DNA from: Desulfobacterales bacterium
GTDB taxonomy: Bacteria > Desulfobacterota > Desulfobacteria > Desulfobacterales > C00003060
Reading direction: 5' to 3'
Length of the DNA stretch: 33,811 nt
Assembly (NCBI GenBank): GCA_013375395.1
Contig: JABXJW010000014.1
Span: 1 to 33,811 of the forward strand
The notes beneath the pieces were generated by a model. That model was not told where the DNA came from. It saw only the letters and a program-made list of their open reading frames with translations, and searched no databases. How positions within the stretch are numbered: position 1 is the first letter of the stretch; the number at the start of each line of letters is the position of its first letter. The position numbers were made by a program, and so were the translations under genes. Positions 3,367 through 16,167 of this stretch are shown one piece after another.

Positions 3367-3395
3367 GATCATGGTTTTGGGCCCTATGTGTATAG

Positions 3396-3446
3396 TTTCA
3401 GCCTTCAGCTTTGAGCTTGTGAGCTTTCAGCTTTTTTTCGCTTTGA
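3396..3446 (+). repeat. Degenerate heptanucleotide repeat cluster A
   Basis: TTTCAGC CTTCAGC TTTGAGC TTGTGAGC TTTCAGC ... CGCTTTGA. Confidence 0.6.
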
Positions 3447-3447
3447 A

Positions 3448-3501
3448 TTGACAAGTTGCTTTCCGCTCTGACATAACGAAATCCAACCCTATCTTCGTTA
3501 T
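3448..3501 (+). promoter_or_regulatory. Candidate promoter plus inverted repeat upstream of the membrane protein gene
   Basis: TTGACA at 3448-3453, ATAACG-type box about 17 nt downstream; inverted repeat ATAACGAA (3473-3480)/TTCGTTAT (3494-3501). Confidence 0.35.
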
Positions 3502-3516
3502 CAAAGTTTCCAACCC

Positions 3517-4773
3517 ATGAATATACCAAGAATTACATACCGTATCATCGAAATATGCCTTATTGTACTACTGGTTTTCACACCCCTTGCCCGCGGCACA
3601 GTCCAGGTATGGGCGGTATCAGTCGCCCATTTTATCACTCTGGTCATGCTTACAGCCTATCTCTTACGCATCATCTTTGATGCGCAATTCCAATGGGTGA
3701 GAACACCTCTCGATCTTCCCCTGATCGGCCTGTTTCTCCTTGCCGTTGTCTCGTCCTTTTCTTCCATTGAATGGTATGCCAGTCTTCATGCCATTATGAA
3801 ACTTGCCAATTATATTATTCTCTATTTCATCATTGTTCATACTATGAGGGAGCGAGACCAGGTGCGGCGCGTGGCCTATACTATCACCATTGTAGGAAGT
3901 TTTCTGGCCCTGTTCGGTATGATCAAATACCTGGGTGGAATTTGCCCCCCGTGGTGGGACTATGACATAACATATAAAGGGATGGTGGCCACCTTTGGCT
4001 GCAAGAATCACCTGGCAGGATACATGGAGATGGTCATTCCCATAACCATCGGCCTCCTTGTGGCGGAAAGAAAAGGATGGAAGAAGGCCCTGTGCGCTTT
4101 TTGCTTGTTTTCCTTATGTGTCGCCCTGACGTTGTCTTTGTCTCGCGGCGGGTGGATGTCCGGAGTTTTTGCCCTTAGTTTTATGCTTATTGTCTATCTT
4201 CTAAAAAGAAAGGGGAAATACAGAGATCTGATGGTTACTGCCGTTGGAATGACAACGGTTGTAGTTATGACCGTCCTGGCGAGCACACCGGCCATAGAAA
4301 AATTGGAAACGTTAACCCGTGGTCACGATTTGCTCAACTCACAGGCCAGGACGGCCGTCTGTGCAAGCACTATCGACCTCATTCGTAACCATCCGTTTCT
4401 TGGGACTGGGCCGGGCACGTTTGCCATCGCATTTACACCGCACCGGCCTGCGGGCGTGAATGCAATGTATCTCCACACCCATAATGATTATCTCCATTGC
4501 ATTTCAGAAACCGGCATCTTAACGGCAGGGCTGATTTTGTGGCTGATGGTTGCAACTTTTTGGTCCGGCATCCGAAAGATTATGGCCGCCGACAGCCGCT
4601 TGACACTGGGAATATCCCTTGGCTCACTTGCCGGTATCGTGGCCATTATGGGGCACAGTGTGGTAGATTTTAATCTCCACATCATGGCAAATGCCATGTT
4701 ATTTACGGTTTTGGCGGCACTCTTGATGACAGCAGGTAGTAAGGAGGCTGGCGGGATAAGGGAGGTGTCATAG
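3517..4773 (+). CDS. O-antigen ligase/polymerase-like (Wzy_C family) membrane protein
   Basis: Multi-TM 418 aa; motifs RGTVQVWA, LSLSRGGWMSG, HPFLGTGPGTF, HTHNDYLHCISETGI. Confidence 0.88.
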   Translation: MNIPRITYRIIEICLIVLLVFTPLARGTVQVWAVSVAHFITLVMLTAYLLRIIFDAQFQWVRTPLDLPLIGLFLLAVVSSFSSIEWYASLHAIMKLANYIILYFIIVHTMRERDQVRRVAYTITIVGSFLALFGMIKYLGGICPPWWDYDITYKGMVATFGCKNHLAGYMEMVIPITIGLLVAERKGWKKALCAFCLFSLCVALTLSLSRGGWMSGVFALSFMLIVYLLKRKGKYRDLMVTAVGMTTVVVMTVLASTPAIEKLETLTRGHDLLNSQARTAVCASTIDLIRNHPFLGTGPGTFAIAFTPHRPAGVNAMYLHTHNDYLHCISETGILTAGLILWLMVATFWSGIRKIMAADSRLTLGISLGSLAGIVAIMGHSVVDFNLHIMANAMLFTVLAALLMTAGSKEAGGIREVS

Positions 4774-4961
4774 ACAATTTTTCTCTATGAAAAATGGATG
4801 TCGCCTAATTGCTACTCGGACGTAAGTCAACGTAGTCAAGATGTCCCCAAAAGGGTCTAAGGTGAAAAAGAGGTCCCCTTTTTCAGGTCCTGTATGGTAT
4901 ATTAAAAAACTTAGTTCGCTTCGCTCACAATTGGGCACGCAGTGAAGCTTTAGCGCTATGT

Positions 4962-5126
4962 TGGAATAATGGAATGATGGGCACGAAGTGAAGCTGTGCG
5001 CTATAATGGGTTCTGGGAAAATGGGACAATGGTTTATTGGCAAAATCTCTCTTGACAGGCAAGTTAATAAATGTGTAACTTCCTTTGAAAACCAATATTC
5101 CAATATTCCACCATTCCATTATTCCA
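4962..5126. repeat. Inverted copies of TGGAATAATGGAATGRTGG and 8-nt tandem repeats
   Basis: TGGAATAATGGAATGATGG at 4962-4980; CCACCATTCCATTATTCCA at 5108-5126 (18/19 complementary); preceding CCAATATT CCAATATT octamers. Confidence 0.7.
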
Positions 5127-5199
5127 TGCGCGAGGCAAAAACCCAGGCCTCGAAAACCTCCTATATTTTCAATAAGTTGCAGAAATTCCGAGACGTCAA

Positions 5200-5544
5200 T
5201 TAAGGTAGGGCCAGATGAATTTTTATGGCTCTTTCAATTTCGGCCATCTCTTTCTTTCCTATTGTCCCGATTAATTTCACGATCCTGCTCTTGTCAAGGG
5301 TGCGGATTTGGTCAGATTTAACCTTTGAAGTTTTCGGCAGTTTTCCGGCTTGTTTAGGCAAGAGCACCTCAAAAGGGTAGATCCTCTGGATGTTCTTGGA
5401 AGTTATAGGCAAAATGGTTACCGTTCCCGAGAATTCGTTGTTTTTGTCGTTGGAGACAATGACAACCGGGCGGGTATTTGAAATCTCTTTTCCCACAACC
5501 GGATCGAGGACGGCAAGACGTATTTGCCCCCTTTTAATATTCAT
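5200..5544 (-). CDS. MazF/PemK-type endoribonuclease toxin
   Basis: MNIKRGQIRLAVLDPVVGKEISNTRPVVIVSNDKNN...; RPVVIVSND and TILPITS motifs; overlaps the antitoxin end. Confidence 0.88.
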   Translation of the reverse strand: MNIKRGQIRLAVLDPVVGKEISNTRPVVIVSNDKNNEFSGTVTILPITSKNIQRIYPFEVLLPKQAGKLPKTSKVKSDQIRTLDKSRIVKLIGTIGKKEMAEIERAIKIHLALP

Positions 5545-5776
5545 CCCATCCCTCCAGATCGGTAGGCTCAAACTCTTTTGTTATGGCAAGACTCTCTGCC
5601 TTCCTGGCTTTATAGCCTTCTTTCAGACGTTTCTGTATTTGATCATTTTCCATTTTTTCAATCCGTTGTCTCAAGGCTTCAGTAATGAAACGACTCTTTT
5701 TTCTGGGTCCCACTAACCTATCCAACTGGTGAGCCAAGTCTTCCGGAAGCGTGATATTTAACCGAACCGTATCCAT
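5534..5776 (-). CDS. Ribbon-helix-helix antitoxin partner of MazF
   Basis: MDTVRLNITLPEDLAHQLDRLVGPRKKSRFITEALRQRIEK, RHH fold. Confidence 0.85.
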   Translation of the reverse strand: MDTVRLNITLPEDLAHQLDRLVGPRKKSRFITEALRQRIEKMENDQIQKRLKEGYKARKAESLAITKEFEPTDLEGWDEY

Positions 5777-5796
5777 AATGCACCTCCATAAGGGGA

Positions 5797-5827
5797 TTAT
5801 AATATGTATTTACAATACATATTATAA
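5797..5827. promoter_or_regulatory. Perfect 14-bp-arm palindrome, probable operator of the RHH/MazF operon
   Basis: TTATAATATGTATT (5797-5810) TAC AATACATATTATAA (5814-5827), just upstream of the antitoxin start at 5776. Confidence 0.75.
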
Positions 5828-5896
5828 AGGGGCCTGTCAAGCGAAAAACACAGGGGAACCATGAAGCTCAACGCAATATTATGCTTTATCCTTTTA

Positions 5897-5950
5897 GCCT
5901 GCGACCTGCGCGGTGCTCTTTGCCCTATGCCCTCTGCGTTTTTGCGCCTT
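5897..5950 (+). repeat. Degenerate heptanucleotide repeat cluster B
   Basis: CCTGCGA CCTGCGC GGTGCTC TTTGCCC TATGCCC TCTGCGT TTTTGCG. Confidence 0.55.
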
Positions 5951-6095
5951 TAATATTTTGATGAAATGTATGTAACTCAGGGGTAATATTTAATCTTAAG
6001 ATGTTACCCTGATCGAATCCAGCTTTCCCCAGCTTTCCAGGGAGTTATTCAACGAATTCAACAAAGTTCCCGGACTTTCCTGATGCACGATTCTC

Positions 6096-6455
6096 TTGTT
6101 GCATTCTGTTTGCGGACATGCTATGGGTACTTTTATGGAAGCAGATGAAATTACAGTAGAAATTGAAAATATTGTAGGGCAAATCATCCAGAAATATCAC
6201 CCCTTGAAAATCATTCTGTTCGGTTCGGCTGGGCGGGAAGAGTATGATAAGGTTAACGACTTAGATTTTCTTATCATAAAAAAGGATGTACCTTGTTATG
6301 GCCTTGCAAGGATGCGTGAACTGGACGAATTAATCGACCGCAATATCGCTGCAGATATGCTTGTTTACCGTCCCGATGAATTCCAGGAGCGCGTCAAACT
6401 GGGCGATCCGTTTATTAAGGCCATTCTCAAAGAAGGCAAGGTTCTTTATGGCTGA
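6096..6455 (+). CDS. MNT-type minimal nucleotidyltransferase (antitoxin of MNT/HEPN module); true start may be 6123 or 6138
   Basis: KIILFGSAGREEYDKVNDLDFLIIKKDV: GSx(n)DxD nucleotidyltransferase motif. Confidence 0.85.
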   Translation: MLHSVCGHAMGTFMEADEITVEIENIVGQIIQKYHPLKIILFGSAGREEYDKVNDLDFLIIKKDVPCYGLARMRELDELIDRNIAADMLVYRPDEFQERVKLGDPFIKAILKEGKVLYG

Positions 6456-6714
6456 TCCACAGGTGGTCAGTGAGTGGCTAAAAAAATCAGACGAAGATTT
6501 CGAATTTGCTACATCTATTATAGAGGATAGCACGTATTACGCTCAAATTTGTTTTCATTTTCACCAGGCAGCTGAAAAGTATCTTAAGTCTTTCATAATA
6601 GCCTTCGATCTGGAATTCAAAAAGATTCATGACTTACCAGTGCTCTTGAAATCGTGCGTGTCCAAAGAGCCCAGTCTGAAAGCAGTTATGGATGACTGCA
6701 AGTTAAGGGATTAG
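6448..6714 (+). CDS. HEPN-domain protein, apparently C-terminally truncated
   Basis: MADPQVVSEWLKKSDEDFEFATSIIEDSTYYAQICFHFHQAAEKYLKSFIIAFDLEFKKIHDLPVLLKSC...; FHxxQAAEKYLK motif; overlaps the MNT stop. Confidence 0.82.
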   Translation: MADPQVVSEWLKKSDEDFEFATSIIEDSTYYAQICFHFHQAAEKYLKSFIIAFDLEFKKIHDLPVLLKSCVSKEPSLKAVMDDCKLRD

Positions 6715-7116
6715 TGCAAATCCCGCTGTGACAAAGTGATGATCAAAGGAGAAAGCTTGTACGATTCCATGTTGCTTCATGAGAGCAAAACTGACTGCAT
6801 CGGTATAGCTGAAATCCTGATCTTTATATTTCTGCAAGATGTCTTCCGCTGTTTCTTCCAATATGTTGTCAGAATAAATTTTGATCACTCGTGGGCTTGC
6901 TGCAATATTTTCCGAAAAGGTAATAGCCGCTTGATGCCCTATGGCGCGGCGTATCAAGATGTACGTTTCAGCAATAACAAGGTTTGTTGTTGTTAAATGA
7001 TGGTAGCTGCTTAGCAGCTTGGGATAAATTTCGATAGCCTGATTGTGATGTTGATCGGATCTGTCCGCCAAAGCAAACCACGCTCCGGTGTCAACAAATA
7101 GTGACTTTTTCTCCAT
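6703..7116 (-). CDS. PIN-domain (VapC-like) toxin
   Basis: SLFVDTGAWFALADRSDQHH..., IAETYILIRR, QDFSYTDAVSFALMKQ, FSFDHHFVTAGF. Confidence 0.87.
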   Translation of the reverse strand: MEKKSLFVDTGAWFALADRSDQHHNQAIEIYPKLLSSYHHLTTTNLVIAETYILIRRAIGHQAAITFSENIAASPRVIKIYSDNILEETAEDILQKYKDQDFSYTDAVSFALMKQHGIVQAFSFDHHFVTAGFALIP

Positions 7117-7125
7117 TTTATAGCT

Positions 7126-7371
7126 CTACTTTTCGTATGAAACCAGGTAGTCATCGTGTTTCTTGGCGATGTCTTGTTTTCCCGAGGACCCCAGGTTCAT
7201 AATACCAAGCGCCGGATCTTTTTCCAGGGGGAGACGGTCGATGAATTTGGAGATGCAAGAGCGGATAATGGCTGCTTTGGACTTGCCGCTGGCCTTCGAC
7301 AAAAGAGTAATGATTTTTTCCTGTTCCGGTTCTAAATAAATTTGAATCGGGGTTTTCTTGAGCCTTTTCAT
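7126..7371 (-). CDS. RHH antitoxin partner of the PIN toxin (ORF track start 7419; RBS-supported ATG at 7371)
   Basis: MKRLKKTPIQIYLEPEQEKIITLLSKASGKSKAAIIRSCISKFID; GGAG 8 nt upstream of ATG. Confidence 0.8.
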   Translation of the reverse strand: MKRLKKTPIQIYLEPEQEKIITLLSKASGKSKAAIIRSCISKFIDRLPLEKDPALGIMNLGSSGKQDIAKKHDDYLVSYEK

Positions 7372-7524
7372 GGCAACGTTCTCCATATCGTCGAGATGTA
7401 ATGTATAAAAATATGACATATAAAATAGTGATTGTCAACAAGAAATTCACCATGATCCCTTACACTTTAATCCCGCCCAATATGAAACTGTCTCTGGAGG
7501 ACGCTCGTATCGTCCCCTGTCCTC

Positions 7525-7574
7525 CACTGGGTGAATTTGCGTCACGGCAGAACCTGAGTAAGTCAATGTAGTCA
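7525..7574 (+). repeat. 50-bp direct repeat, copy 1
   Basis: CACTGGGTGAATTTGCGTCACGGCAGAACCTGAGTAAGTCAATGTAGTCA; partner at 16315-16364 differs at one base. Confidence 0.9.
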
Positions 7575-7824
7575 TGGATGCCCCCAAAGTTCTCCCAAAG
7601 TTCACTCAAAGTACGTATGAACTTCAGTCAAATTCATAGCATATTGATTTTACTTAATATTCAATGATACAATTTTTTGCTTGACACGACTGCTATAGGA
7701 TGTCCCGCAAAACGCCTAACGATTAATAGTGAAGGTTTGACCACAGCGCTTCTCTTAAAGGGTGATTAAAACTTGACTTAGTCCGCGGTTTAGTCTATAT
7801 TCCTTGCCATGGAGGTGACCTAAG

Positions 7825-8061
7825 ATGCCAGTGACGTTTAATATCCACGAAGCAAAAACCCACTTCTCCAAACTCCTGGCCCGCGTAGGAAATGGAGAGG
7901 AGATTGTCATTGCCAAGGCAGGCAAGCCCATTGCCCGTCTGGTTCCGTCAGTGGAAAGGCCGACCCGACGTGTTCCTGGAGGCGCTAAAGAGAAGGTTGT
8001 CATGGCGCCGGATTTTGATGCCCCTTTACCCGAATCTATTCTGGAAACATTTGAAAGATGA
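7825..8061 (+). CDS. Phd/YefM-family antitoxin
   Basis: MPVTFNIHEAKTHFSKLLARVGNGEEIVIAKAGKPIARLVP. Confidence 0.92.
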   Translation: MPVTFNIHEAKTHFSKLLARVGNGEEIVIAKAGKPIARLVPSVERPTRRVPGGAKEKVVMAPDFDAPLPESILETFER

Positions 8062-8444
8062 AGGCACTACTAGATACCCATGCCTTCTTGTGGTGGATTA
8101 CCGACGATCCCCGATTATCACCTCGTGCTCGGGAGATAATCGGGGATGGCAATACCGAGCTTTACCTCAGCGCTGCCAGTGGTTGGGAAATGGCCATTAA
8201 GGCAGGTCTCGGTAGATTACACCTGACCGACAGCCTGGAGCGGATTATTTCGGAACAACTGGCTGCCAATGCCATATATAGCTTGCCTGTTCAGATGAGC
8301 CACGCTTTACATGTTTATACTCTACCGGGTCATCATCGGGACCCTTTTGACCGAATCCTTATTTCCCAGGCCATATTGGAGCATTTGCCCTTATTGACCA
8401 TTGACCCTGAAATTGCCAAGTATACTGCGGAGGTTCTCTGGTAA
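8058..8444 (+). CDS. VapC-type PIN toxin
   Basis: MKALLDTHAFLWWITDDPRLSPRAREII...; HHRDPFDRILISQA; ATGA overlap with the antitoxin. Confidence 0.92.
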   Translation: MKALLDTHAFLWWITDDPRLSPRAREIIGDGNTELYLSAASGWEMAIKAGLGRLHLTDSLERIISEQLAANAIYSLPVQMSHALHVYTLPGHHRDPFDRILISQAILEHLPLLTIDPEIAKYTAEVLW

Positions 8445-8551
8445 GAAACACAATCTGGGAGTTGAAAGGAACAAATGTCAATATTTCACGAGCGGCCCAA
8501 AAGGTACGCTGCTCACCATCCTGAAACAAGCCGGTATTTCCAGAGATGAAT

Positions 8552-8656
8552 TTTGAACTTTCAGCTCTACCCTTTGCACTCTGCCCTATGCGCCATGCGC
8601 TTTGAGCTTTCAGCTGCAATCTTCTCACTGTGAACTATGAACTATGAGCTTTAAGT
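8552..8656 (+). repeat. Heptanucleotide repeat cluster C: 15 consecutive 7-nt units
   Basis: TTTGAAC TTTCAGC TCTACCC TTTGCAC TCTGCCC TATGCGC CATGCGC TTTGAGC TTTCAGC TGCAATC TTCTCAC TGTGAAC TATGAAC TATGAGC TTTAAGT. Confidence 0.85.
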
Positions 8657-8823
8657 TAAGTCAACCTATAGGCATTGTGCGCATACTTTACGACTTGTTG
8701 TATTAAGAATAGCTTACTTATGGTTGTTGATCAAGTAAACTAAAGAAAATGTGACTGGCGGAATGTCAAATGTTGAGATTTAACCCCTCTCCTCATTCGA
8801 TTGGTCCGACCCCGAAAGGTATA

Positions 8824-9084
8824 ATGGAACCTATATTTTTGCAAATTCCTCCTGAAATAGCGGCACAATTAAAGCTACCACCAAAGAGGGCTCAAAGGGT
8901 TCTGATGGAAGAGCTTGTGTTGCGCCTTTATGAGGAAGGCATTATTTCTGCTGGCCAAGGGGCATATCTGTTAAAAATGGATCGGCTGTCCTTTGAGCGC
9001 TTTATGGCAGAGCGTTGTATAGCTATTCATTGTGATGTTGAAGAACTGGATCAGGATATTTCTCACTTGGACCAGGCATTATGA
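8824..9084 (+). CDS. UPF0175-family antitoxin-like protein
   Basis: MEPIFLQIPPEIAAQLKLPPKRAQRVLMEELVLRLYEEGIISAGQGAYLLKMDRLSFERFMAERCI. Confidence 0.85.
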   Translation: MEPIFLQIPPEIAAQLKLPPKRAQRVLMEELVLRLYEEGIISAGQGAYLLKMDRLSFERFMAERCIAIHCDVEELDQDISHLDQAL

Positions 9085-9635
9085 TTGTCAGCAATACCAC
9101 GCCCATCAGCAATTTACTTCATATTGACAAGATTTCAGTTTTAAGTGAACTGTTTGGCACCATTCATATTCCGGAAGCAGTGGCTAATGAAGTAAACGTT
9201 GTTTTTTCAAGTTACCCCTAACGTTGCAGAAATCGAGGGTGCCGCAGATTCAAGGCGTCGAGGGTGAAGCTGTAGTAATTTACCGCGAACCCTCGACAAC
9301 ACAGGAGATGCGGTGTCCTCGGTTTTCCCGAAGGGTGAACAACAGGGCGAATATGAAACTGTCTCTCAACCTCACTATATGTGGAATCATGGAAAATGCC
9401 TGGAAATCTATAGAATCCTTTAGTGCCAAGGTTTCTTTATGGTCTAGCCCTGTTGTTTATGCAACATTAGGGTTACGAAGAATGGCAGGAGTATGTTGAA
9501 GGAGAGCAGATAATTATTCAGCCCATATCGAACACTATTTTTGTAAAACAATTGGTGCCATTTCTTCATCAAGGCGAGGCCGAAGCGATTTGTCTTATAG
9601 TCTTGAAAAAAAGCAAAACTATGCCTTATAGATAA
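9081..9635 (+). pseudogene. DUF3368 PIN-like toxin gene split by a 257-bp insertion; 3' end also decayed
   Basis: 5' part MIVSNTTPISNLLHIDKISVLSELFGTIHIPEAVANEVNVVFSSY; 3' part EEWQEYVEGEQIIIQPISNTIFVKQLVPFLHQGEAEAICLIVLKK; ATGA overlap with UPF0175. Confidence 0.9.
9216..9472. mobile_element. MITE-like non-autonomous element with TIRs and 4-bp TSD
   Basis: TIR CCCTAACGTTGCA (9216-9228) / TGCAACATTAGGG (9460-9472), 12/13 complementary; TTAC at 9212-9215 and 9473-9476; internal stem GTCGAGGGT (9257-9265)/ACCCTCGAC (9289-9297). Confidence 0.88.
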
Positions 9636-9720
9636 CAAGTAACAGTGCAAATGGGCGATTAATCAAACCCGCACAACTTGTCGCCCCATACTCTTGTCTA
9701 TTTCATTTTGGAGGAGAAAT

Positions 9721-9960
9721 ATGGAAGACTTGCTGAACCGTATCACCTTTAATAAAGATGTTCTTTGTGGCAAGCCTCTCATTCGTGGTTTGCGGATATC
9801 TGTTGAAATGATATTGGAGCTATTGGCCAAAGGGGCTACAGAAGAAGAGATTTTACAAGACTATCCTCAACTTGAATCAGATGACCTCCGCGCCGCATTG
9901 CTCTATGCCCATCATATGGTGGCTAGAGAGGATGTTTTTGATCGTGCCTCGGCCGGATAG
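9721..9960 (+). CDS. DUF433 antitoxin-like protein 1
   Basis: ITFNKDVLCGKPLIRGLRISVEMILELLAKGATEEEILQDYPQLESDDLRAALLYA; GGAGGAG upstream of ATG. Confidence 0.92.
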   Translation: MEDLLNRITFNKDVLCGKPLIRGLRISVEMILELLAKGATEEEILQDYPQLESDDLRAALLYAHHMVAREDVFDRASAG

Positions 9961-9969
9961 ATAAATGCT

Positions 9970-10320
9970 ATGAATTTCTTGTCAGATGTCAACGCGAGTG
10001 GGGCGGTAGCTCGTTGGTTGATTGACCGGGGGCATAATGTGGCGGAGGTGGGTCAGAAGGACCCAAGAATGAGTGATGATGAGATCTTGAGGTGGGCTTT
10101 GAGAGAGCGTAGGATTATTGTTACGACAGACAATGATTTTGAGGAAATGATCTGGCGACAAGGGAAGTCACATTGTGGTGTCTTACGTTTGGAAAACCTA
10201 CCACGATCTCAGAGAAAAGCACTTGTACATGATGTTCTGGATCGCCATAGCAAGGATTTGGAATCAGGGGCCATTGTCATTGCGTTAAGCAGGAAGTTCC
10301 GTGTTCGTAGGCAGTCCTAA
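9970..10320 (+). CDS. DUF5615 PIN-like toxin 1
   Basis: MNFLSDVNASGAVARWLIDRGHNVAEVGQKDPRMSDDEILRWALRERRIIVTTDNDFEEMI. Confidence 0.9.
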   Translation: MNFLSDVNASGAVARWLIDRGHNVAEVGQKDPRMSDDEILRWALRERRIIVTTDNDFEEMIWRQGKSHCGVLRLENLPRSQRKALVHDVLDRHSKDLESGAIVIALSRKFRVRRQS

Positions 10321-10324
10321 CGAG

Positions 10325-10398
10325 TTTCAGCTTTGAGCTATCAGCTCTTTTTTGCCTCCAACGTCAAACCTAATACCTATTGCGGCGCAGCCCTGTGC
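10325..10398 (+). repeat. Island repeat block, copy 1
   Basis: TTTCAGCTTTGAGCTATCAGCTCTTTTTTGCCTCCAACGTCAAACCTAATACCTATTGCGGCGCAGCC; near-identical to 12972 onward, shorter match at 14683. Confidence 0.85.
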
Positions 10399-10407
10399 GC
10401 CTTACGC

Positions 10408-10479
10408 TTTCAGCTTATTACACTCTGCGCTCTGCTCTCTTCCCTCTGCTGTTTGCCCTATGCGCTATGCGCTATGGAG
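10408..10479 (+). repeat. Heptanucleotide repeat cluster D
   Basis: TTTCAGC ... TCTGCGC TCTGCTC TCTTCCC TCTGCTG TTTGCCC TATGCGC TATGCGC TATGGAG. Confidence 0.8.
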
Positions 10480-10623
10480 AAATCGAGAAACTTAAGAAGT
10501 AAATGTCCCCCAAAGGCGTCCCCGGGGTCAATCCTGTTCTAATATGGCTAATCCTCTCTAATAATATGCTTTATTCAATCAAGCTTGACAAATAGTAACA
10601 TTAATGTTACTTCCTAAAAGTGC

Positions 10624-10950
10624 GTGATAGAGGTAAAGGAATACATAGACGAGGCGGGCAAGTCGCCTTTTGCCGTGTGGCAGGATCACTTGAATGCGAG
10701 GACGGCCGCGAAAGTCTCTACAGCATTGTATCGCCTTGAGCAGGGGAACTTTTCGAATACAAAAGGTATTGGTGGTGGAATTTTCGAGTACAAAATTGAT
10801 TTTGGTCCTGGCTACCGGATCTATTTTGGCAAAGATAGCAAGCATATTGTAATAATTTTAGGCGGCGGAACAAAGAAACGCCAACAACAGGATATAAATA
10901 CCGCAAAGGCTTACTGGCGGGACTATAAAGCCCGGAAACGCAAAAAGTAA
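10624..10950 (+). CDS. RelE/HigB-type toxin (phage-derived Gp49-like/HigB family), GTG start
   Basis: FAVWQDHLNARTAAKVSTALYRLEQGN...IFEYKIDFGPGYRIYFGKDSKHIVIILGGGTKKRQQQDINTAKAYWRDYK. Confidence 0.87.
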   Translation: MIEVKEYIDEAGKSPFAVWQDHLNARTAAKVSTALYRLEQGNFSNTKGIGGGIFEYKIDFGPGYRIYFGKDSKHIVIILGGGTKKRQQQDINTAKAYWRDYKARKRKK

Positions 10951-11025
10951 CCCTGATGTTTTAATTGTCTATTCATACTCTCGTCGTCTTGTTTATGCAA
11001 TGTTAGAGATAAGTGAGGTATTATA

Positions 11026-11394
11026 ATGGTTTTAACAAGAGATTTTCGAAAAACTATACAAGCCCGTGCAAGAAAAGACCCCGCGTACCGAGAAGCTATG
11101 CTGACCGAAGCGGTGGACAGCTTTTTGTCTGGTGACATTGAGGTTGGCAAGGCAATGCTGCGTGATTATATAAACGCTACAATTGGCTTTGAAGCACTCA
11201 GTCAGCAGATCGGTAAGCCCAGCAAAAGCCTTCAACGGATGCTGGGCCCGGCCGGCAATCCGAAAACAAGCAACTTCTTCCACATTCTGCGGTTTTTACA
11301 GCGCAATGAAGGAGTGGAATTAGTAGTTAAGGCTCGCCACCATACAGATGCCGGAATGTATGGTGTGGCAGAAGAGATTCACTTGGAGCCTTGA
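11026..11394 (+). CDS. HigA-like helix-turn-helix antitoxin
   Basis: MVLTRDFRKTIQARARKDPAYREAMLTEAVDSFLSGDIEVGKAMLRDYINATIGFEALSQQIGKPSKSLQRMLGPAGNPKTSNFFHILRFL. Confidence 0.85.
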   Translation: MVLTRDFRKTIQARARKDPAYREAMLTEAVDSFLSGDIEVGKAMLRDYINATIGFEALSQQIGKPSKSLQRMLGPAGNPKTSNFFHILRFLQRNEGVELVVKARHHTDAGMYGVAEEIHLEP

Positions 11395-11461
11395 GCTTTC
11401 AGCTTTTTTCGCTCTGCCCTTTACTCTCTTGCATTCAGCTTTGAGCTTTCAGCTCTCTATG
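11391..11461 (+). repeat. Heptanucleotide repeat cluster E
   Basis: TTGAGC TTTCAGC ... TCTGCCC TTTACTC TCTTGCA TTCAGC TTTGAGC TTTCAGC TCTCTATG. Confidence 0.7.
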
Positions 11462-11556
11462 ATCTTAGATGCAGTCTTCGTCTAAAACAAATTGTGCACG
11501 TTCAGCACGAATGTCCCCTTTGATCCCTGGCGTGAGTAGACCAGAACCCTATTATT

Positions 11557-11587
11557 ATCCCACAATAAAGACAAGAGATTGTGGGAT
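11557..11587. repeat. Perfect 10-bp inverted repeat
   Basis: ATCCCACAAT (11557-11566) AAAGACAAGAG ATTGTGGGAT (11578-11587). Confidence 0.8.
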
Positions 11588-11748
11588 TTGCTTGGATATT
11601 AAGTGACAAAGTGCCAACGTCCCCAGCTACCTCCCCGAAAGAGGAATGAGAATCCTTGACAACCCGTAAATTATAAGCCAATATTTGGGCATAAATTCAA
11701 AAGGTAAGATGTCCCCTCACATCTCTTTCGTTTAAGGAGGTTTGTAAC

Positions 11749-11970
11749 ATGCAAAGAATAATCATTGATAAGAATATTAGACACGGTAAACCTGTTACAA
11801 GAGGTACAAGAGTTCCAGTGGACATTATTCTTGGTTCCCTGGCTGGTGGCATGTCATACCAGGAAATTTGCGAGGATTATGAAATAACAGAGGATGACAT
11901 AAAGGCAGCTATAGAATATGCCACCAGACTGGTTGCTGATGAAGAAGTTCACCTATTAGAGGCTATATAG
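11749..11970 (+). CDS. DUF433 antitoxin-like protein 2
   Basis: MQRIIIDKNIRHGKPVTRGTRVPVDIILGSLAGGMSYQEICEDYEITEDDIKAAIEYATRLV. Confidence 0.93.
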   Translation: MQRIIIDKNIRHGKPVTRGTRVPVDIILGSLAGGMSYQEICEDYEITEDDIKAAIEYATRLVADEEVHLLEAI

Positions 11971-12352
11971 TGATTAAGATCTTAGTTTATGAAGACATGC
12001 CTCGCCCTACTGCAGATTTGTTGCGATCTCTTAATATCGACGCATTTGACGTAAGGGAAGTTGGCTGAGGGGAGCAACAGATCAAGAGATTTTCAAATAT
12101 GCCCAAAAGAAAGGGATGATTATCATATCAAGAAATAAGGAGTTCAGTAGTATTGTAAAATATCCTCTGGGTACTCATTCTGGAATCATTGTAGCAAGGC
12201 TTCCCTATACTTTTGTTCGTAGTCAAATCTTGTCCATTATTAAGAAGTTTTTTATTGATGTTGAAAAGAGTAAGCTGCCAAACAATTTAACTATTTTGGA
12301 AGTTGAAAAATATAGGATTAAGACAGTAACACCTGTCTCTCAACAAGCATAG
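11970..12352 (+). pseudogene. DUF5615 PIN-like toxin 2, broken by a single frameshift
   Basis: Frame 1 VIKILVYEDMPRPTADLLRSLNIDAFDVREVG* (stop 12066-12068), then another frame LRGATDQEIFKYAQKKGMIIISRNKEFSSIVKYPLGTHSGIIVARLP. Confidence 0.85.
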
Positions 12353-12386
12353 TTATGCGCCGTATGAAACAACGAATTCCTATTCC

Positions 12387-12557
12387 TCTTTTGGGAAAGA
12401 CAGATTTGAAGAAGGAAAGTTATTATTGCAGACGGCTTGGAGGGTGGACCCGAGGCTTCAACCAGTACCGATATCATCCGAGGCATTTAAAAAGAATACA
12501 TGGATACCGCTGATACACGAAATAAGAGAAAAAGGTGTTGAAATCAGGGCTGCCTGA
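12387..12557 (+). pseudogene. C-terminal remnant resembling an MNT-type nucleotidyltransferase
   Basis: Frame reads SFGKDRFEEGKLLLQTAWRVDPRLQPVPISSEAFKKNTWIPLIHEIREKGVEIRAA*. Confidence 0.55.
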
Positions 12558-12633
12558 CAACAACCGTTTACCAAAGGCGTACTGAGTAAACGATGTCCCC
12601 CTTTTTCGCTGCTCCGCCGCAGGCAGATTGTGT

Positions 12634-12702
12634 TTTCTCAGTTTCATCCCCGTCCGCCTCGCCTGAGCGGCTCGCGATGGCGGGCAGACGGAAACCGAGA
12701 AA
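12634..12702. repeat. Long imperfect hairpin
   Basis: TTTCTCAGTTTCATCCCCGTCCGCC ... GGCGGGCAGACGGAAACCGAGAAA. Confidence 0.7.
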
Positions 12703-12727
12703 GAAAAAATCCCATTAATCCTGCTTG

Positions 12728-12794
12728 CCCCGTTAAATGTTTACCCCCGTTGAATCGAGTTTATTCGACCGGGGAACCACCATATTTAACCGGG
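12728..12794. repeat. Nested inverted repeats
   Basis: Outer CCCCGTTAAAT/ATTTAACCGGG; inner CCCCCGTTGAAT/ATTCGACCGGGG. Confidence 0.65.
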
Positions 12795-12814
12795 ATAAAT
12801 CCTGTCTAACAAAT

Positions 12815-13003
12815 TGTGCTTCTGCTCTATGCCCCTTGCTTTCAGCTTTGAGCCTTGAGCTCCGAACTGTGTCTTCTGCCGTCCGACATCTGTCATCTGT
12901 CATCTGTCATGTGTCATCTGTTTTCTGCGCTTGACGCTCTGCTCTATGCTCTCTGCACCATGCGCATACACTTTCAGCTTTGAGCTATCAGCTCTTTTTT
13001 GCC
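12815..13003 (+). repeat. Heptanucleotide repeat cluster F (longest)
   Basis: Includes TCTGTCA TCTGTCA TCTGTCA TGTGTCA TCTGTTT TCTGCGC TTGACGC TCTGCTC TATGCTC TCTGCAC CATGCGC ... TTTCAGC TTTGAGC TATCAGC. Confidence 0.85.
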
Positions 13004-13110
13004 TCTAACCTCAAACCTAATACCTGCCGCGGCGCAGCCCCTGTGCTCCTGAGACCTAACGCAGCGCAGCCTAATGAGTTACTGATTTACAAATGGACGT
13101 CCCTATTTTC
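12972..13110 (+). repeat. Island repeat block copy 2 followed by CCTAACGCAGCGCAGCCTAATGAGTTACTGATTTACAAATGGACGTCCC
   Basis: Block match to 10325 onward; second part (13055-13110) matches 13566-13614 and 14735-14792. Confidence 0.85.
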
Positions 13111-13139
13111 TAATTGTCGTCTTCGACAACCATCAGCGC

Positions 13140-13505
13140 GTGGGGCTCCCGACCAGCCCTTTCGAGGCAATCCAGGTTTTTGGCACCGTTCAACGTCGTC
13201 TCATTTACAATCAAGACATTGGAGGCACTGAAGATCGGGGTTGGGCTCATGGCCCGCGCCAGATTCTCACCCCAAACCGTAAGCAGTATGTCTCAGCCGT
13301 GGCGATCAACCTGCCAAAGGCTGGCAACGCGTACACAGAACCACCGACCATCGAGCGGCCCATGCGGCTTCAAATAGTCCACAATCCATACGCAACGTGT
13401 CCATTGGACAAGAGCCTCTTTGCTGATCCTGAAGACGAACATTACGAGCTGGTTGAGGGGCAATGGGTCAACGCTGTAACCAAGGAGCCTCTCCTGAGAT
13501 CGTAG
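13140..13505 (+). CDS. Hypothetical ORF, unassigned; could be a fragment
   Basis: 121 aa open frame flanked by dispersed repeats; no family recognised. Confidence 0.3.
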   Translation: MGLPTSPFEAIQVFGTVQRRLIYNQDIGGTEDRGWAHGPRQILTPNRKQYVSAVAINLPKAGNAYTEPPTIERPMRLQIVHNPYATCPLDKSLFADPEDEHYELVEGQWVNAVTKEPLLRS

Positions 13506-13565
13506 TGTCCTTTCTCAAAGCTTGTTGCGTAGCCGGTATGCCTCGTCTACTGTGCGCAAACTAAC

Positions 13566-13614
13566 CCTAACGTAGCGCAGCCTAATGAGTTGCTGATTTA
13601 CAAATGGACGTCCC
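13566..13614 (+). repeat. Second dispersed repeat, copy 2
   Basis: CCTAACGTAGCGCAGCCTAATGAGTTGCTGATTTACAAATGGACGTCCC. Confidence 0.88.
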
Positions 13615-13766
13615 GCTTGCCGCCGCGAACGTCCCCTTAGCCGCTAAGGTTTTCCTTGACCTAAGCCACAATTTTTTTTATAATTTTAATATTATTGATT
13701 TCCATTTGTTTCTTTCCAAGAAGTAGTTTTAATGTGATAGAAAAAATAAATGAAAGGGGGAATACT

Positions 13767-14078
13767 ATGGCTGTAGCATTACAAGCGAAAACATATCCCC
13801 ACATTGGATCTGACCCCGAAATTGCCGATGGAAAACCTATAATTGTTGGAACTCGAATCACTGTCAGATGTATTGCTGGATATTATCAGATGGGGATGAG
13901 CGCTGACGAAATTCTAACAACCTTGCCCCACTTAGCGCCCTCACAGGTCCATTCAGCTTTGGCATACTATTTTGACCATCAAGAGGAGGTTGACGCGGAT
14001 CTGGCTGAATCTTCAGATGTGGAGTTCTGGAAATCAAAGATTGCGCCGCACCCTAGTCAGAAAGCCCCGAATGTATGA
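13767..14078 (+). CDS. DUF433 antitoxin-like protein 3
   Basis: HIGSDPEIADGKPIIVGTRITVRCIAGYYQMGMSADEILTTLPHLAPSQVHSALAYYFDH; GAAAGGGGG upstream of ATG. Confidence 0.92.
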   Translation: MAVALQAKTYPHIGSDPEIADGKPIIVGTRITVRCIAGYYQMGMSADEILTTLPHLAPSQVHSALAYYFDHQEEVDADLAESSDVEFWKSKIAPHPSQKAPNV

Positions 14079-14413
14079 AAATCGAGTTATTTTTGGACGA
14101 AGATGTACATTCAGGGTTGGCACATGCCTTGCGGAAAAGGGGATATGATGTCATTCATGCTCAGGAACTGGATCGGAAAGGACGGTCTGATTCAGATCAG
14201 CTTCTATTTGCCATTCAGAAAGAAAGATGTCTTTTTACTTTCAATGTGAAAGATTTTGTGATCCTCCACAACCAGTACGCAAAAAGCCAACAAGAACACT
14301 GGGGGATTATTGTTTCAAAACAAGTTCCATTCAGAGAATCAATGTCAAGATTGTTACGCCTGCTTCAGCGTACTGCCAAAGAAACAATGAAGAACCATTT
14401 GGAGTTCTTGTAG
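14075..14413 (+). CDS. DUF5615 PIN-like toxin 3
   Basis: MKIELFLDEDVHSGLAHALRKRGYDVIHAQELDRKGRSDSDQLLFAIQKERCLFTFNVKDFVILHN; ATGA overlap. Confidence 0.92.
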   Translation: MKIELFLDEDVHSGLAHALRKRGYDVIHAQELDRKGRSDSDQLLFAIQKERCLFTFNVKDFVILHNQYAKSQQEHWGIIVSKQVPFRESMSRLLRLLQRTAKETMKNHLEFL

Positions 14414-14425
14414 ATTCTCTTTTTT

Positions 14426-14536
14426 CCAGAACTTGATAATTTCCCCCATCACAAGCATCTCCCGAATGAAGTAACCGGAATTGAGAAACCTTCGATTTTT
14501 GAGGCAATTGAGGAGGCAAGGCTGTCGGCTCAATAA
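14426..14536 (+). pseudogene. C-terminal remnant resembling a TumE-like (DUF6516) toxin
   Basis: PELDNFPHHKHLPNEVTGIEKPSIFEAIEEARLSAQ*; FPHHKHLP motif. Confidence 0.5.
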
Positions 14537-14601
14537 TATGTCAACAGGTAGTAATGAGGCTATCTTGTGAATCCTGTCAAAAAGAATATTTAACTTTATT
14601 C

Positions 14602-14629
14602 TCTGCACTATGCGCCATGCGCCTGTGAG
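14602..14629 (+). repeat. Heptanucleotide repeat cluster G
   Basis: TCTGCAC TATGCGC CATGCGC CTGTGAG. Confidence 0.65.
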
Positions 14630-14682
14630 TAATTCAACGTAGTCAAAGGCGTCCCCAAAGTTCTGTGTTTTTGCTTTTTCTC

Positions 14683-14751
14683 TTTGAGCACTCAGCTCTT
14701 TTCGCTTCTTTTGCCTCCAACCTCAACCCTAACACCTAACGCGGCGCAGCC
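14683..14751 (+). repeat. Island repeat block, copy 3 (diverged)
   Basis: TTTGAGCACTCAGCTCTTTTCGCTTCTTTTGCCTCCAACCTCAACCCTAACACCTAACGCGGCGCAGCC. Confidence 0.7.
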
Positions 14752-14760
14752 TAATGAGTT

Positions 14761-14824
14761 ACTGATTTACAAATGGACGTCCCTGTTTTCGCACTGATTT
14801 ACAAATGGACGTCCCTGTTTTCGC
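14761..14824 (+). repeat. Perfect 32-bp tandem duplication at the transposase 3' end
   Basis: ACTGATTTACAAATGGACGTCCCTGTTTTCGC at 14761-14792 and 14793-14824. Confidence 0.95.
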
Positions 14825-16167
14825 ATTAGATCTTTCCGAACAGTAGGGTTTGCGCTCATAGTCAGGGTGAGTTCTCCTTGGGGCCGTGTGAGTCGGCCAG
14901 CGCGTTGAACGATGCGATGCCGGAGGGTATCGAGAGCTTGGAAGGTCCAAGCTGCGGGACGTTTTGGAAGTGCCCGAGGTGACGGAGGGCTGGCAAGCAT
15001 TTGTATTTCGCGAGACAAGTTGTGGGCCATCATGGCGCACAGTGTAAATATCTGGTTGCCTGCCAATCGCCTCGTAGCAATGACGTCGAGGCCGGTATCG
15101 TTTTTGGCGTCACCGAAGATGGCTTCCTGTGAGCCACGCCCATTATGGAACAGAACCACGCTCTTTGCCGATTCGCTCTTGTTTGTAACAATGACCTTGT
15201 ATTCGTAATCGAAATCACGGGGTTCGAACAGATGCAGTTGCAGTGGGCCTTTGTATTGCTTTTTTGTTTTCTTGCGAGTGAAGATAAATCGGTATTTGGT
15301 ATCCCAAGACTTGGGTTTCCAATTGGCCGCAAAGTATGACCAGTCGCTGTCGATGCGCCGCCAGCGTTTTCGCTGCTCGATCATATTCTTGAGCATTGGA
15401 AATCTTTCGAATGGAACGGAGGCCGTAAAGCGCACATTACGGCTGTCGAGAACACAGAAGATTTTCTTGTCAAAGAATGCGGAATCAACTCTTGACTCAA
15501 ATGGTGTATTTTTCAACTCGTTTTGTGCTTTATCGAAACAACGCATCATGAACTCTGGTGCACCATTGGAGTCGTGAACATTTCCTGGGCGATGATGAAC
15601 GTCGAAAAATTGGCTTGTTTGGGCCACGGTACAAAACAGTGGATAGTAACTTCGGCCACCCTTTTTCTTTTTGTTGAAACCGACAGCGGTGCCTTCTGCG
15701 TGGGCCTTGGTTGTGAGCACTGAGCCATCGAAGTCAAGGGTTAAGCGAGGTAGGTGCTCGCGCCTAAGGCCTTCGACAACGAGTGAACAAAACAGGTCAC
15801 GAACCTTGTCGACTTCCTCACATTGCATTTGTGAAAGAGCGCGGGAAACGGTGGAAACATCTGGTAGCTTGCGCAAACCCAATAAACGAAGAACCAAAGG
15901 ATCGTCACGATAGTAATCGATTTCGCGCAGACGGCGAAAGCCAAGCAAAAGATGCACAATCAGTAGTAGCACGACGAGATGCCGTCCAAAGATAGGCGAT
16001 ATTTTCAAATGACTAAAACACTTTTTCAGCCGGCGCTTCAGATTCATTCTCACAAAAAGTGCCTGAAATATCAATAAACCCGAAAAGGAAGTAAGTTTTT
16101 GGTCCTCAAAACGAATGGTCGGAATTTTGTGGAATTTGGCAAGAATTTGTGCTTTACTGGATTTCAC
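14767..16167 (-). CDS. IS1380-family-type DDE transposase
   Basis: 466 aa; FGRHLVVLLLIVHLLLGFRRLREIDYYRDDPLVLRLLGLRKLPDVSTVSRAL, LTLDFDGSVLTT, KKGGRSYYPLFCTVAQT, RPGNVHDSNGA. Confidence 0.85.
   Translation of the reverse strand: MKSSKAQILAKFHKIPTIRFEDQKLTSFSGLLIFQALFVRMNLKRRLKKCFSHLKISPIFGRHLVVLLLIVHLLLGFRRLREIDYYRDDPLVLRLLGLRKLPDVSTVSRALSQMQCEEVDKVRDLFCSLVVEGLRREHLPRLTLDFDGSVLTTKAHAEGTAVGFNKKKKGGRSYYPLFCTVAQTSQFFDVHHRPGNVHDSNGAPEFMMRCFDKAQNELKNTPFESRVDSAFFDKKIFCVLDSRNVRFTASVPFERFPMLKNMIEQRKRWRRIDSDWSYFAANWKPKSWDTKYRFIFTRKKTKKQYKGPLQLHLFEPRDFDYEYKVIVTNKSESAKSVVLFHNGRGSQEAIFGDAKNDTGLDVIATRRLAGNQIFTLCAMMAHNLSREIQMLASPPSPRALPKRPAAWTFQALDTLRHRIVQRAGRLTRPQGELTLTMSANPTVRKDLMRKQGRPFVNQCENRDVHL

What the first reader, a model, noticed from the sequence alone, without database searches (positions are those of the whole stretch)
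3396..14715. Degenerate heptanucleotide repeat family (about TNTGNNC) in the gaps between TA modules, always in one orientation
Clusters near 3396, 5897, 8552, 10325/10408, 11391, 12815, 14602 and 14683 resolve into consecutive 7-nt words. The 8552-8656 cluster is 15 exact-length units, nearly all ending in C; 12815-13003 is longer. Seven of the clusters lie in gaps beside TA modules, and all read the same way on the + strand although some modules face the other way. I saw none by eye in the glycosyltransferase block (16.4-32 kb). Heptanucleotide STRR repeats are known from heterocystous cyanobacteria; the variable words and cassette-like placement here look different. Inference: the repeats could be homology or slippage sites through which modules accumulate, or debris tolerated between addiction modules.
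Basis: partly seen in the sequence, partly recalled or inferred. Interest (0 to 1): 0.82.

Follow-up and report, generated by a model that had tools for sequence, protein, structure and literature searches.

The report
One-way seven-base repeats punctuating toxin-antitoxin cassettes
Between the toxin-antitoxin modules of this bacterium lie real arrays of loosely matching seven-letter words that all point one way and that border a set of modules which differs between related species, so they look like the joints of a swappable addiction-gene island, although the same repeats also occur in many ordinary gaps of the genome.

Summary
Lag-7 arrays sit at nearly all stated places. In the toxin-antitoxin (TA) island every word chain (YNTSNNC) reads forward: 10 to 0 here, 32 to 0 over this and related islands, against 0.7 per strand in shuffles. 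The family is not confined to TA gaps: it lies in intergenic DNA genome-wide (55 arrays against 1.0 shuffled in 649 kb), often beside housekeeping genes, and in 89 of 395 genomes of the phylum. Elsewhere arrays also form inverted pairs (28, none everted), as reported for Geobacter metallireducens. Arrays gain and lose whole heptads.

What is distinctive is the island. At the same exopolysaccharide locus relatives carry other TA modules, separated by forward heptads and often a nonamer motif. Some modules are 94-95% identical between species whose adjacent gene is 82-83% identical. One deletion junction lies at an array start, and two close genomes diverge inside that array. Breakpoint enrichment at arrays is not statistically proven (P=0.08), and no attC sites were found in the window. 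The swap-joint mechanism is inferred.

The parts
3386..3445 (+). short heptad array upstream of the wzy-like gene (TTTCAGC CTTCAGC TTTGAGC, then out of phase)
   Evidence: no such array just upstream of the orthologous gene in L064
4825..4853 (+). nonamer motif AGTCAACGTAGTCAA..GTCCCC, degenerate copy (6 mismatches)
4908..5199 (.). dispersed element whose arms are degenerate octads (GGAATAAT / ATTCCATT) in inverted orientation; part of it 96% identical to L040 9190-9384
5200..5776 (-). PemK/MazF toxin and ribbon-helix-helix antitoxin; 5197-5853 is 95.5% identical to G018, where the flanking wzy gene is 82.7%
5877..5950 (+). heptad array
6096..6714 (+). nucleotidyltransferase-HEPN module
6703..7419 (-). 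PIN toxin and upstream small gene (VapBC-like)
7561..7589 (+). nonamer motif, degenerate copy, upstream of the Phd-PIN module
7825..8444 (+). Phd/YefM antitoxin and PIN toxin
8541..8662 (+). heptad array; 15 exact units at 8552-8656
8770..9084 (+). UPF0175 protein (antitoxin-like); the downstream frame is broken
9694..10320 (+). DUF433-DUF5615 pair (VapBC-like)
10325..10402 (+). heptads plus CCTAA..GCGGCGCAGCC tail; 91% identical to 12972-13050 and 79% to 14682-14751
10390..10502 (+). heptad array
10624..11394 (+). RelE/Gp49-like gene (below Pfam cut-off) and small downstream gene without a Pfam match (HigBA-like)
11379..11479 (+). heptad array overlapping the 3' end of the previous gene
11749..12352 (+). 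DUF433-DUF5615 pair; the second gene is matched over its C-terminal half only
12389..12562 (+). fragment 90.2% identical to the 3' part of a nucleotidyltransferase gene of the G018 island
12817..13027 (+). longest heptad array, words of several subfamilies (TTTCAGC, TGTCATC, TCTGCTC)
13764..14413 (+). DUF433-DUF5615 pair
14590..14626 (+). heptad array (TTTATTC TCTGCAC TATGCGC CATGCGC)
14632..14660 (+). nonamer motif ATTCAACGTAGTCAAAGGCGTCCCCAAAG (4 mismatches)
14660..14767 (+). degenerate heptads with CCTAACGCGGCGCAGCC tail

Best explanation
The clusters are degenerate heptanucleotide arrays (YNTSNNC, complement GYNNANR) of a large family of short-word intergenic repeats in this bacterium (a MAG whose close relative is named Desulfobacteria bacterium). 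Arrays gain and lose whole heptads, and their words turn over faster than single bases around them (shown on a dispersed element of two relatives). In the TA island of the exopolysaccharide locus they all have one orientation and follow individual TA modules, in relatives often with a nonamer motif (AGTCAACNTAGTCAACAACGTCCCCAAAG) next to them (shown). Different species carry different modules at the same place, and some modules moved between lineages (shown from identity). Inferred: the repeats give neighbouring and incoming modules short shared homology in a fixed direction, so that modules are joined, lost and exchanged there by recombination or replication slippage without inverting the island.
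For: Chains in six islands: 32 forward, 0 reverse, 0.72 expected per strand in shuffles. The wzy orthologues of G018, G020 and G007 are followed by different TA modules separated by heptad arrays. Nonamer motifs stand between TA modules in G018 and G020 with 0-2 mismatches and in G007 with 2-7; copies in the window are degenerate. G018 against G020 (flanks 96-97% identical): a MazEF block is present in one only; a toxin gene is deleted in G018 with the right endpoint at the first heptad, TGTGCTTTTCGC; after 29 shared array bases the two genomes differ completely. A nucleotidyltransferase-HEPN block including its array is 94.0% identical between G007 and G020, whose wzy genes are 82.4%, and the match ends inside the nonamer motif of G020. 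The MazEF block is 95.5% identical between window and G018 against 82.7% for wzy. Whole-heptad turnover: in copies of one element with 1.9% spacer divergence, arm lengths differ in 64% of comparisons and word position 4 in 22%.
Against: Breakpoints are not significantly enriched at arrays over other non-coding island DNA (P=0.08), and several counted endpoints are ends of array-to-array matches. The MazEF gain between G018 and G020 has no array at its junctions. Most TA loci elsewhere in the genome lack arrays and many arrays lie far from TA genes. Exopolysaccharide gaps without TA genes also carry arrays. The wzy-linked islands are one homologous locus, so the polarity count is not 32 independent events. 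No recombinase was identified.
Confidence: 0.5

Rival explanations
1. Tolerated debris: the arrays are selfish or neutral short-word repeats that grow by slippage and spread wherever a gap is long and harmless. TA modules gather in the same permissive gaps of a fast-evolving exopolysaccharide locus, and the two are linked only through the place.
For: Genome-wide intergenic family with periods 7, 8, 9 and 10. At the orthologous rpe gap of same-genus genomes the occupant varies: a short gap free of arrays in several, a heptad inverted pair here, 9-mer or octad inverted pairs, nested inverted pairs, or a HEPN-like gene in G007. A heptad pair fills a 143-bp gap here that is 35 bp in G002. Most TA loci have no array.
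Against: Complete polarity in islands (32:0), whereas arrays elsewhere occur in both orientations and as inverted pairs; recurrence of heptads plus nonamer motif between modules.
Confidence: 0.28
2. Rho-dependent terminators or insulators: on the gene-sense strand the arrays are long C-rich, G-poor, pyrimidine-rich stretches behind most modules, so they could load Rho and keep addiction modules from reading into each other.
For: C 32%, G 17%, pyrimidines 66% over 18 arrays; C/G above 1 in 17 of 18; the opposite strand usually folds more stably. Same direction as the islands' main transcription; single arrays between co-directional genes 12 co to 4 anti.
Against: Arrays are not clearly depleted from divergent gaps (5 of 47 arrays against 19% of gap bases). 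Most island arrays are not less structured than shuffles of the same composition. A rut site needs no strict 7-nt period. Two modules in the window face the other way.
Confidence: 0.12
3. Binding arrays for a DNA-organising or regulatory protein, as proposed for the paired tandem octa- and heptanucleotide sites of Geobacter metallireducens.
For: Constrained word grammar shared across arrays (fit 598 against 410 +/- 14 when columns are permuted within arrays); inverted pairs of one polarity only (28:0); position 4 of the two arms is not complementary (30 of 90), which speaks against a base-paired stem; Geobacter precedent.
Against: No protein known; the number of words varies freely between copies of one element; the window's arrays are not paired.
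Confidence: 0.07
4. An integron: the TA modules are integron cassettes and the spacers are attC sites.
For: An IntI-type integrase over the curated cut-off is in the genome (G000:C390) and in G004, G005, G007; TA cassettes are common in superintegrons (general knowledge); CCTAACGC.GCGCAGCC words resemble half of an attC.
Against: No RYYYAAC..GTTRRRY pair with matching L boxes in the window or in the G018 locus; one in the G020 contig, on a scan that gives about 0.1-0.35 by chance per locus. The integrase lies on another contig beside cobalamin-type genes, with no such pair on it.
Confidence: 0.03

Closest known systems
STRR heptanucleotide repeats of heterocystous cyanobacteria, and the abundance of heptanucleotides among long simple repeats of prokaryotes
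   Same: intergenic tandem heptanucleotides in many copies; slippage as proposed source
   Different: words here are degenerate under a shared grammar and several subfamilies mix in one array; other phylum; TA-island polarity. STRR facts are general knowledge; the heptanucleotide survey is summarised in PMC4679880
[quoted passage not shown]
   Same: four to five tandem octa- or heptanucleotides, mostly in pairs on opposite strands at variable distance; insertion sequences at class 1 sites
   Different: consensus MTYCTGA or GTTGCTYN against GCTSAAA here; the window's island arrays are unpaired and one-directional
TAACTGA heptamer repeats of marine Beggiatoaceae (PMC4679880)
   Same: abundant intergenic direct heptamers with patchy distribution
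   Different: one invariant word, related heptamers rarely repeated; placed directly before start codons
Superintegron TA cassettes
   Same: many TA modules in a row in a variable island
   Different: attC scan negative in the window and no integrase in the locus; spacers are heptads and nonamers

Membership tests
Short tandem heptanucleotide repeats (STRR-like) | tandem 7-nt period well above chance, intergenic | tested here: met
Short tandem heptanucleotide repeats (STRR-like) | near-identical unit within an array | tested here: not met
   words vary at positions 2, 5 and 6 and in part at 1 and 4
Geobacter-type paired tandem-repeat sites | arrays mostly in pairs on opposite strands | tested here: not met
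   met for part of the YTTSARC arrays elsewhere (28 pairs, 60 single); not for the window's island, which has no reverse chain
Geobacter-type paired tandem-repeat sites | consensus MTYCTGA or GTTGCTYN | tested here: not met
   fitted consensus GYNNANR
Integron cassette array | attC sites between cassettes | tested here: not met
   none in window or G018 locus, simple box scan only
Integron cassette array | IntI next to the array | tested here: not met
   IntI on contig C390, not on C226; contigs are fragmented
Rho utilisation site | C-rich, G-poor sense strand | tested here: met
Rho utilisation site | Rho-dependent 3' ends in vivo | not testable with these tools
   needs RNA data
Structured RNA family | match to an Rfam model | tested here: not met
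   no Rfam match in the window at gathering thresholds

The most novel reading that the evidence does not exclude
A cassette system without integron features: toxin-antitoxin modules captured in one orientation into an exopolysaccharide locus, each carrying a heptad array as a 3' tail and meeting the next at a nonamer site, with exchange between species at these sites by a dedicated or homology-based mechanism.
Probability: 0.2. Interest if true: 0.85.

Novelty: new variant of a known kind. Interest (0 to 1): 0.6.

Why it matters
How TA modules accumulate side by side in chromosomes outside integrons is poorly understood. An island with comparable modules in several sequenced relatives, a fixed repeat polarity and a recurrent boundary motif makes the joining mechanism directly testable. 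The wider family, whose words change by whole units under a shared grammar, gives a marker for intergenic turnover in a phylum where such repeats seem little described.

Tried and rejected
RNA stem from paired arms: position-4 bases of the two arms are not complementary (30 of 90 in loop register), so rejected as the general explanation. TA-specific element: rejected from the genome-wide counts. Integron: rejected on present evidence. Terminator by gap type: no clear depletion in divergent gaps. Plasmid or phage origin: no match of the 8541-8662 array in plasmid or phage collections, none of the boundary motif in plasmids and none of its exact form in viral contigs; 120 or more stretches of viral contigs carry four YTTSARC words in a row, not followed up, host contamination possible. 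Rfam: nothing. Replication-strand bias could not be tested on a 591-contig MAG.
Full report
Check of the observation. The window is contig C226 of a 4.25 Mb, 591-contig MAG. Lag-7 identity over 105-bp windows gives seven peaks between 5839 and 14767, and at a threshold of 0.48 only lag 7 and its multiples score. Words fit YNTSNNC: 13 runs of three or more on the + strand and 1 on the - strand. The 15-unit array at 8552-8656 is as described. The TA modules are confirmed by Pfam. The glycosyltransferase block has only 826 bp of non-coding sequence, so the absence of arrays there is weak evidence.

The family beyond the window. In a 649 kb sample of the same genome, 55 intergenic lag-7 arrays were found against 1.0 in block shuffles, with further arrays at lags 8 (24 against 1.2), 9 (9 against 0.2) and 10 (10 against 0.6). 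Much of that sample was fetched because it held arrays; in 226 kb of contigs picked by number the density was 0.82 arrays per 10 kb of intergenic DNA, and at PIN/DUF433 loci 4.8 per 10 kb, but that excess comes mainly from three places, C226, C509 and C372, all near exopolysaccharide genes, and overlapping loci were counted more than once. A fit with free phase and strand finds a shared grammar GYNNANR, score 598 against 410 +/- 14 when the columns of each array are permuted. YTTSARC triplets occur in 19 of 21 other genomes called the same genus and in 89 of 395 genomes (61 of 252 genera) of the phylum, mostly far above the reversed-pattern control. Of the YTTSARC runs in fetched loci, 28 inverted pairs (reverse arm, spacer, forward arm), no everted pair and 60 single arrays were seen. 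The two arms are not complementary at word position 4.

How arrays change. Thirteen copies of one dispersed element of G002 and G008 were found; nine could be compared in both arms. They differ by 1.9% in the spacer and 1.8% at six word positions, but by 22% at position 4, and arm length differs in 64% of comparisons. Whole heptads are thus gained and lost. At the orthologous rpe gap of same-genus genomes several have a short gap without arrays, while others have a heptad pair (this genome), 9-mer or octad pairs, nested inverted pairs (G005 with one layer more than G020), or a HEPN-like gene (G007). The HEPN call for G007 rests on reading the sequence, not on a profile search. The polA-menF gap is 143 bp with a heptad pair here and 35 bp in G002.

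The island. Orthologues of the wzy-like gene (3517-4773) were found in G018, G020 (82% protein identity), G007, G008 and G017 (75-76%). In G018, G020 and G007 it is followed by TA modules mostly other than those of the window, alternating with heptad arrays; in G008 and G017 arrays stand in exopolysaccharide gaps without such an island. The identity of modules in relatives rests mainly on sequence reading and on homology to each other. In the window, G018, G007, G020 C523, C509 and C372 all chains of three or more words read in the direction of the island's main genes: 32 to 0, shuffled mean 0.72 per strand. C509 was turned to match its genes and C523 to match the motif, and the wzy-linked islands are one homologous locus, so this is not 32 independent events. 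A nonamer motif, AGTCAACNTAGTCAACAACGTCCCCAAAG, stands between modules in G018 and G020 with 0-2 mismatches, in G007 with 2-7, and in the window in three degenerate copies. The strict motif also occurs at places without an obvious TA gene (G016, G020 C475).

Exchange and breakpoints. G018 and G020 are 96-97% identical around wzy. G018 has a MazEF block between wzy and the next antitoxin gene that G020 lacks; no array lies at those junctions. G018 lacks the toxin gene next door: the deletion ends at the first heptad of the array, and 29 bases further the two genomes diverge inside the array into different modules. The MazEF block is 95.5% identical between window and G018 against 82.7% for wzy. 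A nucleotidyltransferase-HEPN block with its array is 94.0% identical between G007 and G020 against 82.4% for wzy; it starts at TTGACA of its likely promoter and ends inside the motif of G020. A test of 21 homology endpoints gave 13 at arrays against 9.4 expected in non-coding island DNA, P=0.08; some of these are ends of array-to-array matches, and the G007 endpoints were left out because the island limits for G007 had been set wrongly in that script. Statistical enrichment is therefore not established.

Alternatives. An IntI-type integrase is in the genome on C390 but the attC-like box scan finds nothing in the window or the G018 locus. On the sense strand arrays are C-rich and G-poor (32% and 17%), which would suit Rho loading, but gap-type counts give no support. 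No Rfam family matches.

Judgement. The repeats are a genuine, abundant, degenerate relative of known heptanucleotide repeats and of the paired sites of Geobacter metallireducens. Their strict polarity between swappable TA modules is the unusual part. Whether they cause the swapping or merely share the place is open.

Noticed in passing
window 9076-9473: The frame after the UPF0175 gene looks like a broken PIN gene; 9216-9473 is 98% identical to L068 389-646, another TA contig, as if a 258-bp piece had been inserted.
   Followed up: partly
window 14761-14825: Perfect 32-bp tandem duplication at the end of the DDE transposase gene (14767-16167); parts of it recur at 13079-13110 and 13566-13614 and in the G007 island.
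   Followed up: partly
L167 and L174 (G005 and G020, upstream of rpe): Nested inverted pairs of different word families (CACTTTAG outside, CACGAAA inside); G020 lacks the inner layer.
   Followed up: partly
L017 5482-5565: A heptad array lies inside a polysaccharide deacetylase-like gene and is read in frame (QRSAVRNQRSAVRGQQSVV).
   Followed up: no
L069 1681-2616 (G000:C390): Integron-type integrase gene beside cobalamin-type genes, without recognisable attC pairs on the contig.
   Followed up: partly
L039 3920-4169, L044 8384-8445, L014 4793-4853: Arrays alternating 9 and 10 bases (CACTTTAGCT CACTTTAGG), in L039 as an inverted pair about 110 bp apart.
   Followed up: no
L036 9393-9554: A fragment that reads like a REP-associated tyrosine transposase stands next to a mixed heptad array.
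   Followed up: no
window 12724-12800 and inter-module gaps of G018 and G020: Hairpins of the form GGGGTTAAAT-loop-ATTTAACCGGGG with variant stems recur between arrays and the nonamer motif.
   Followed up: no
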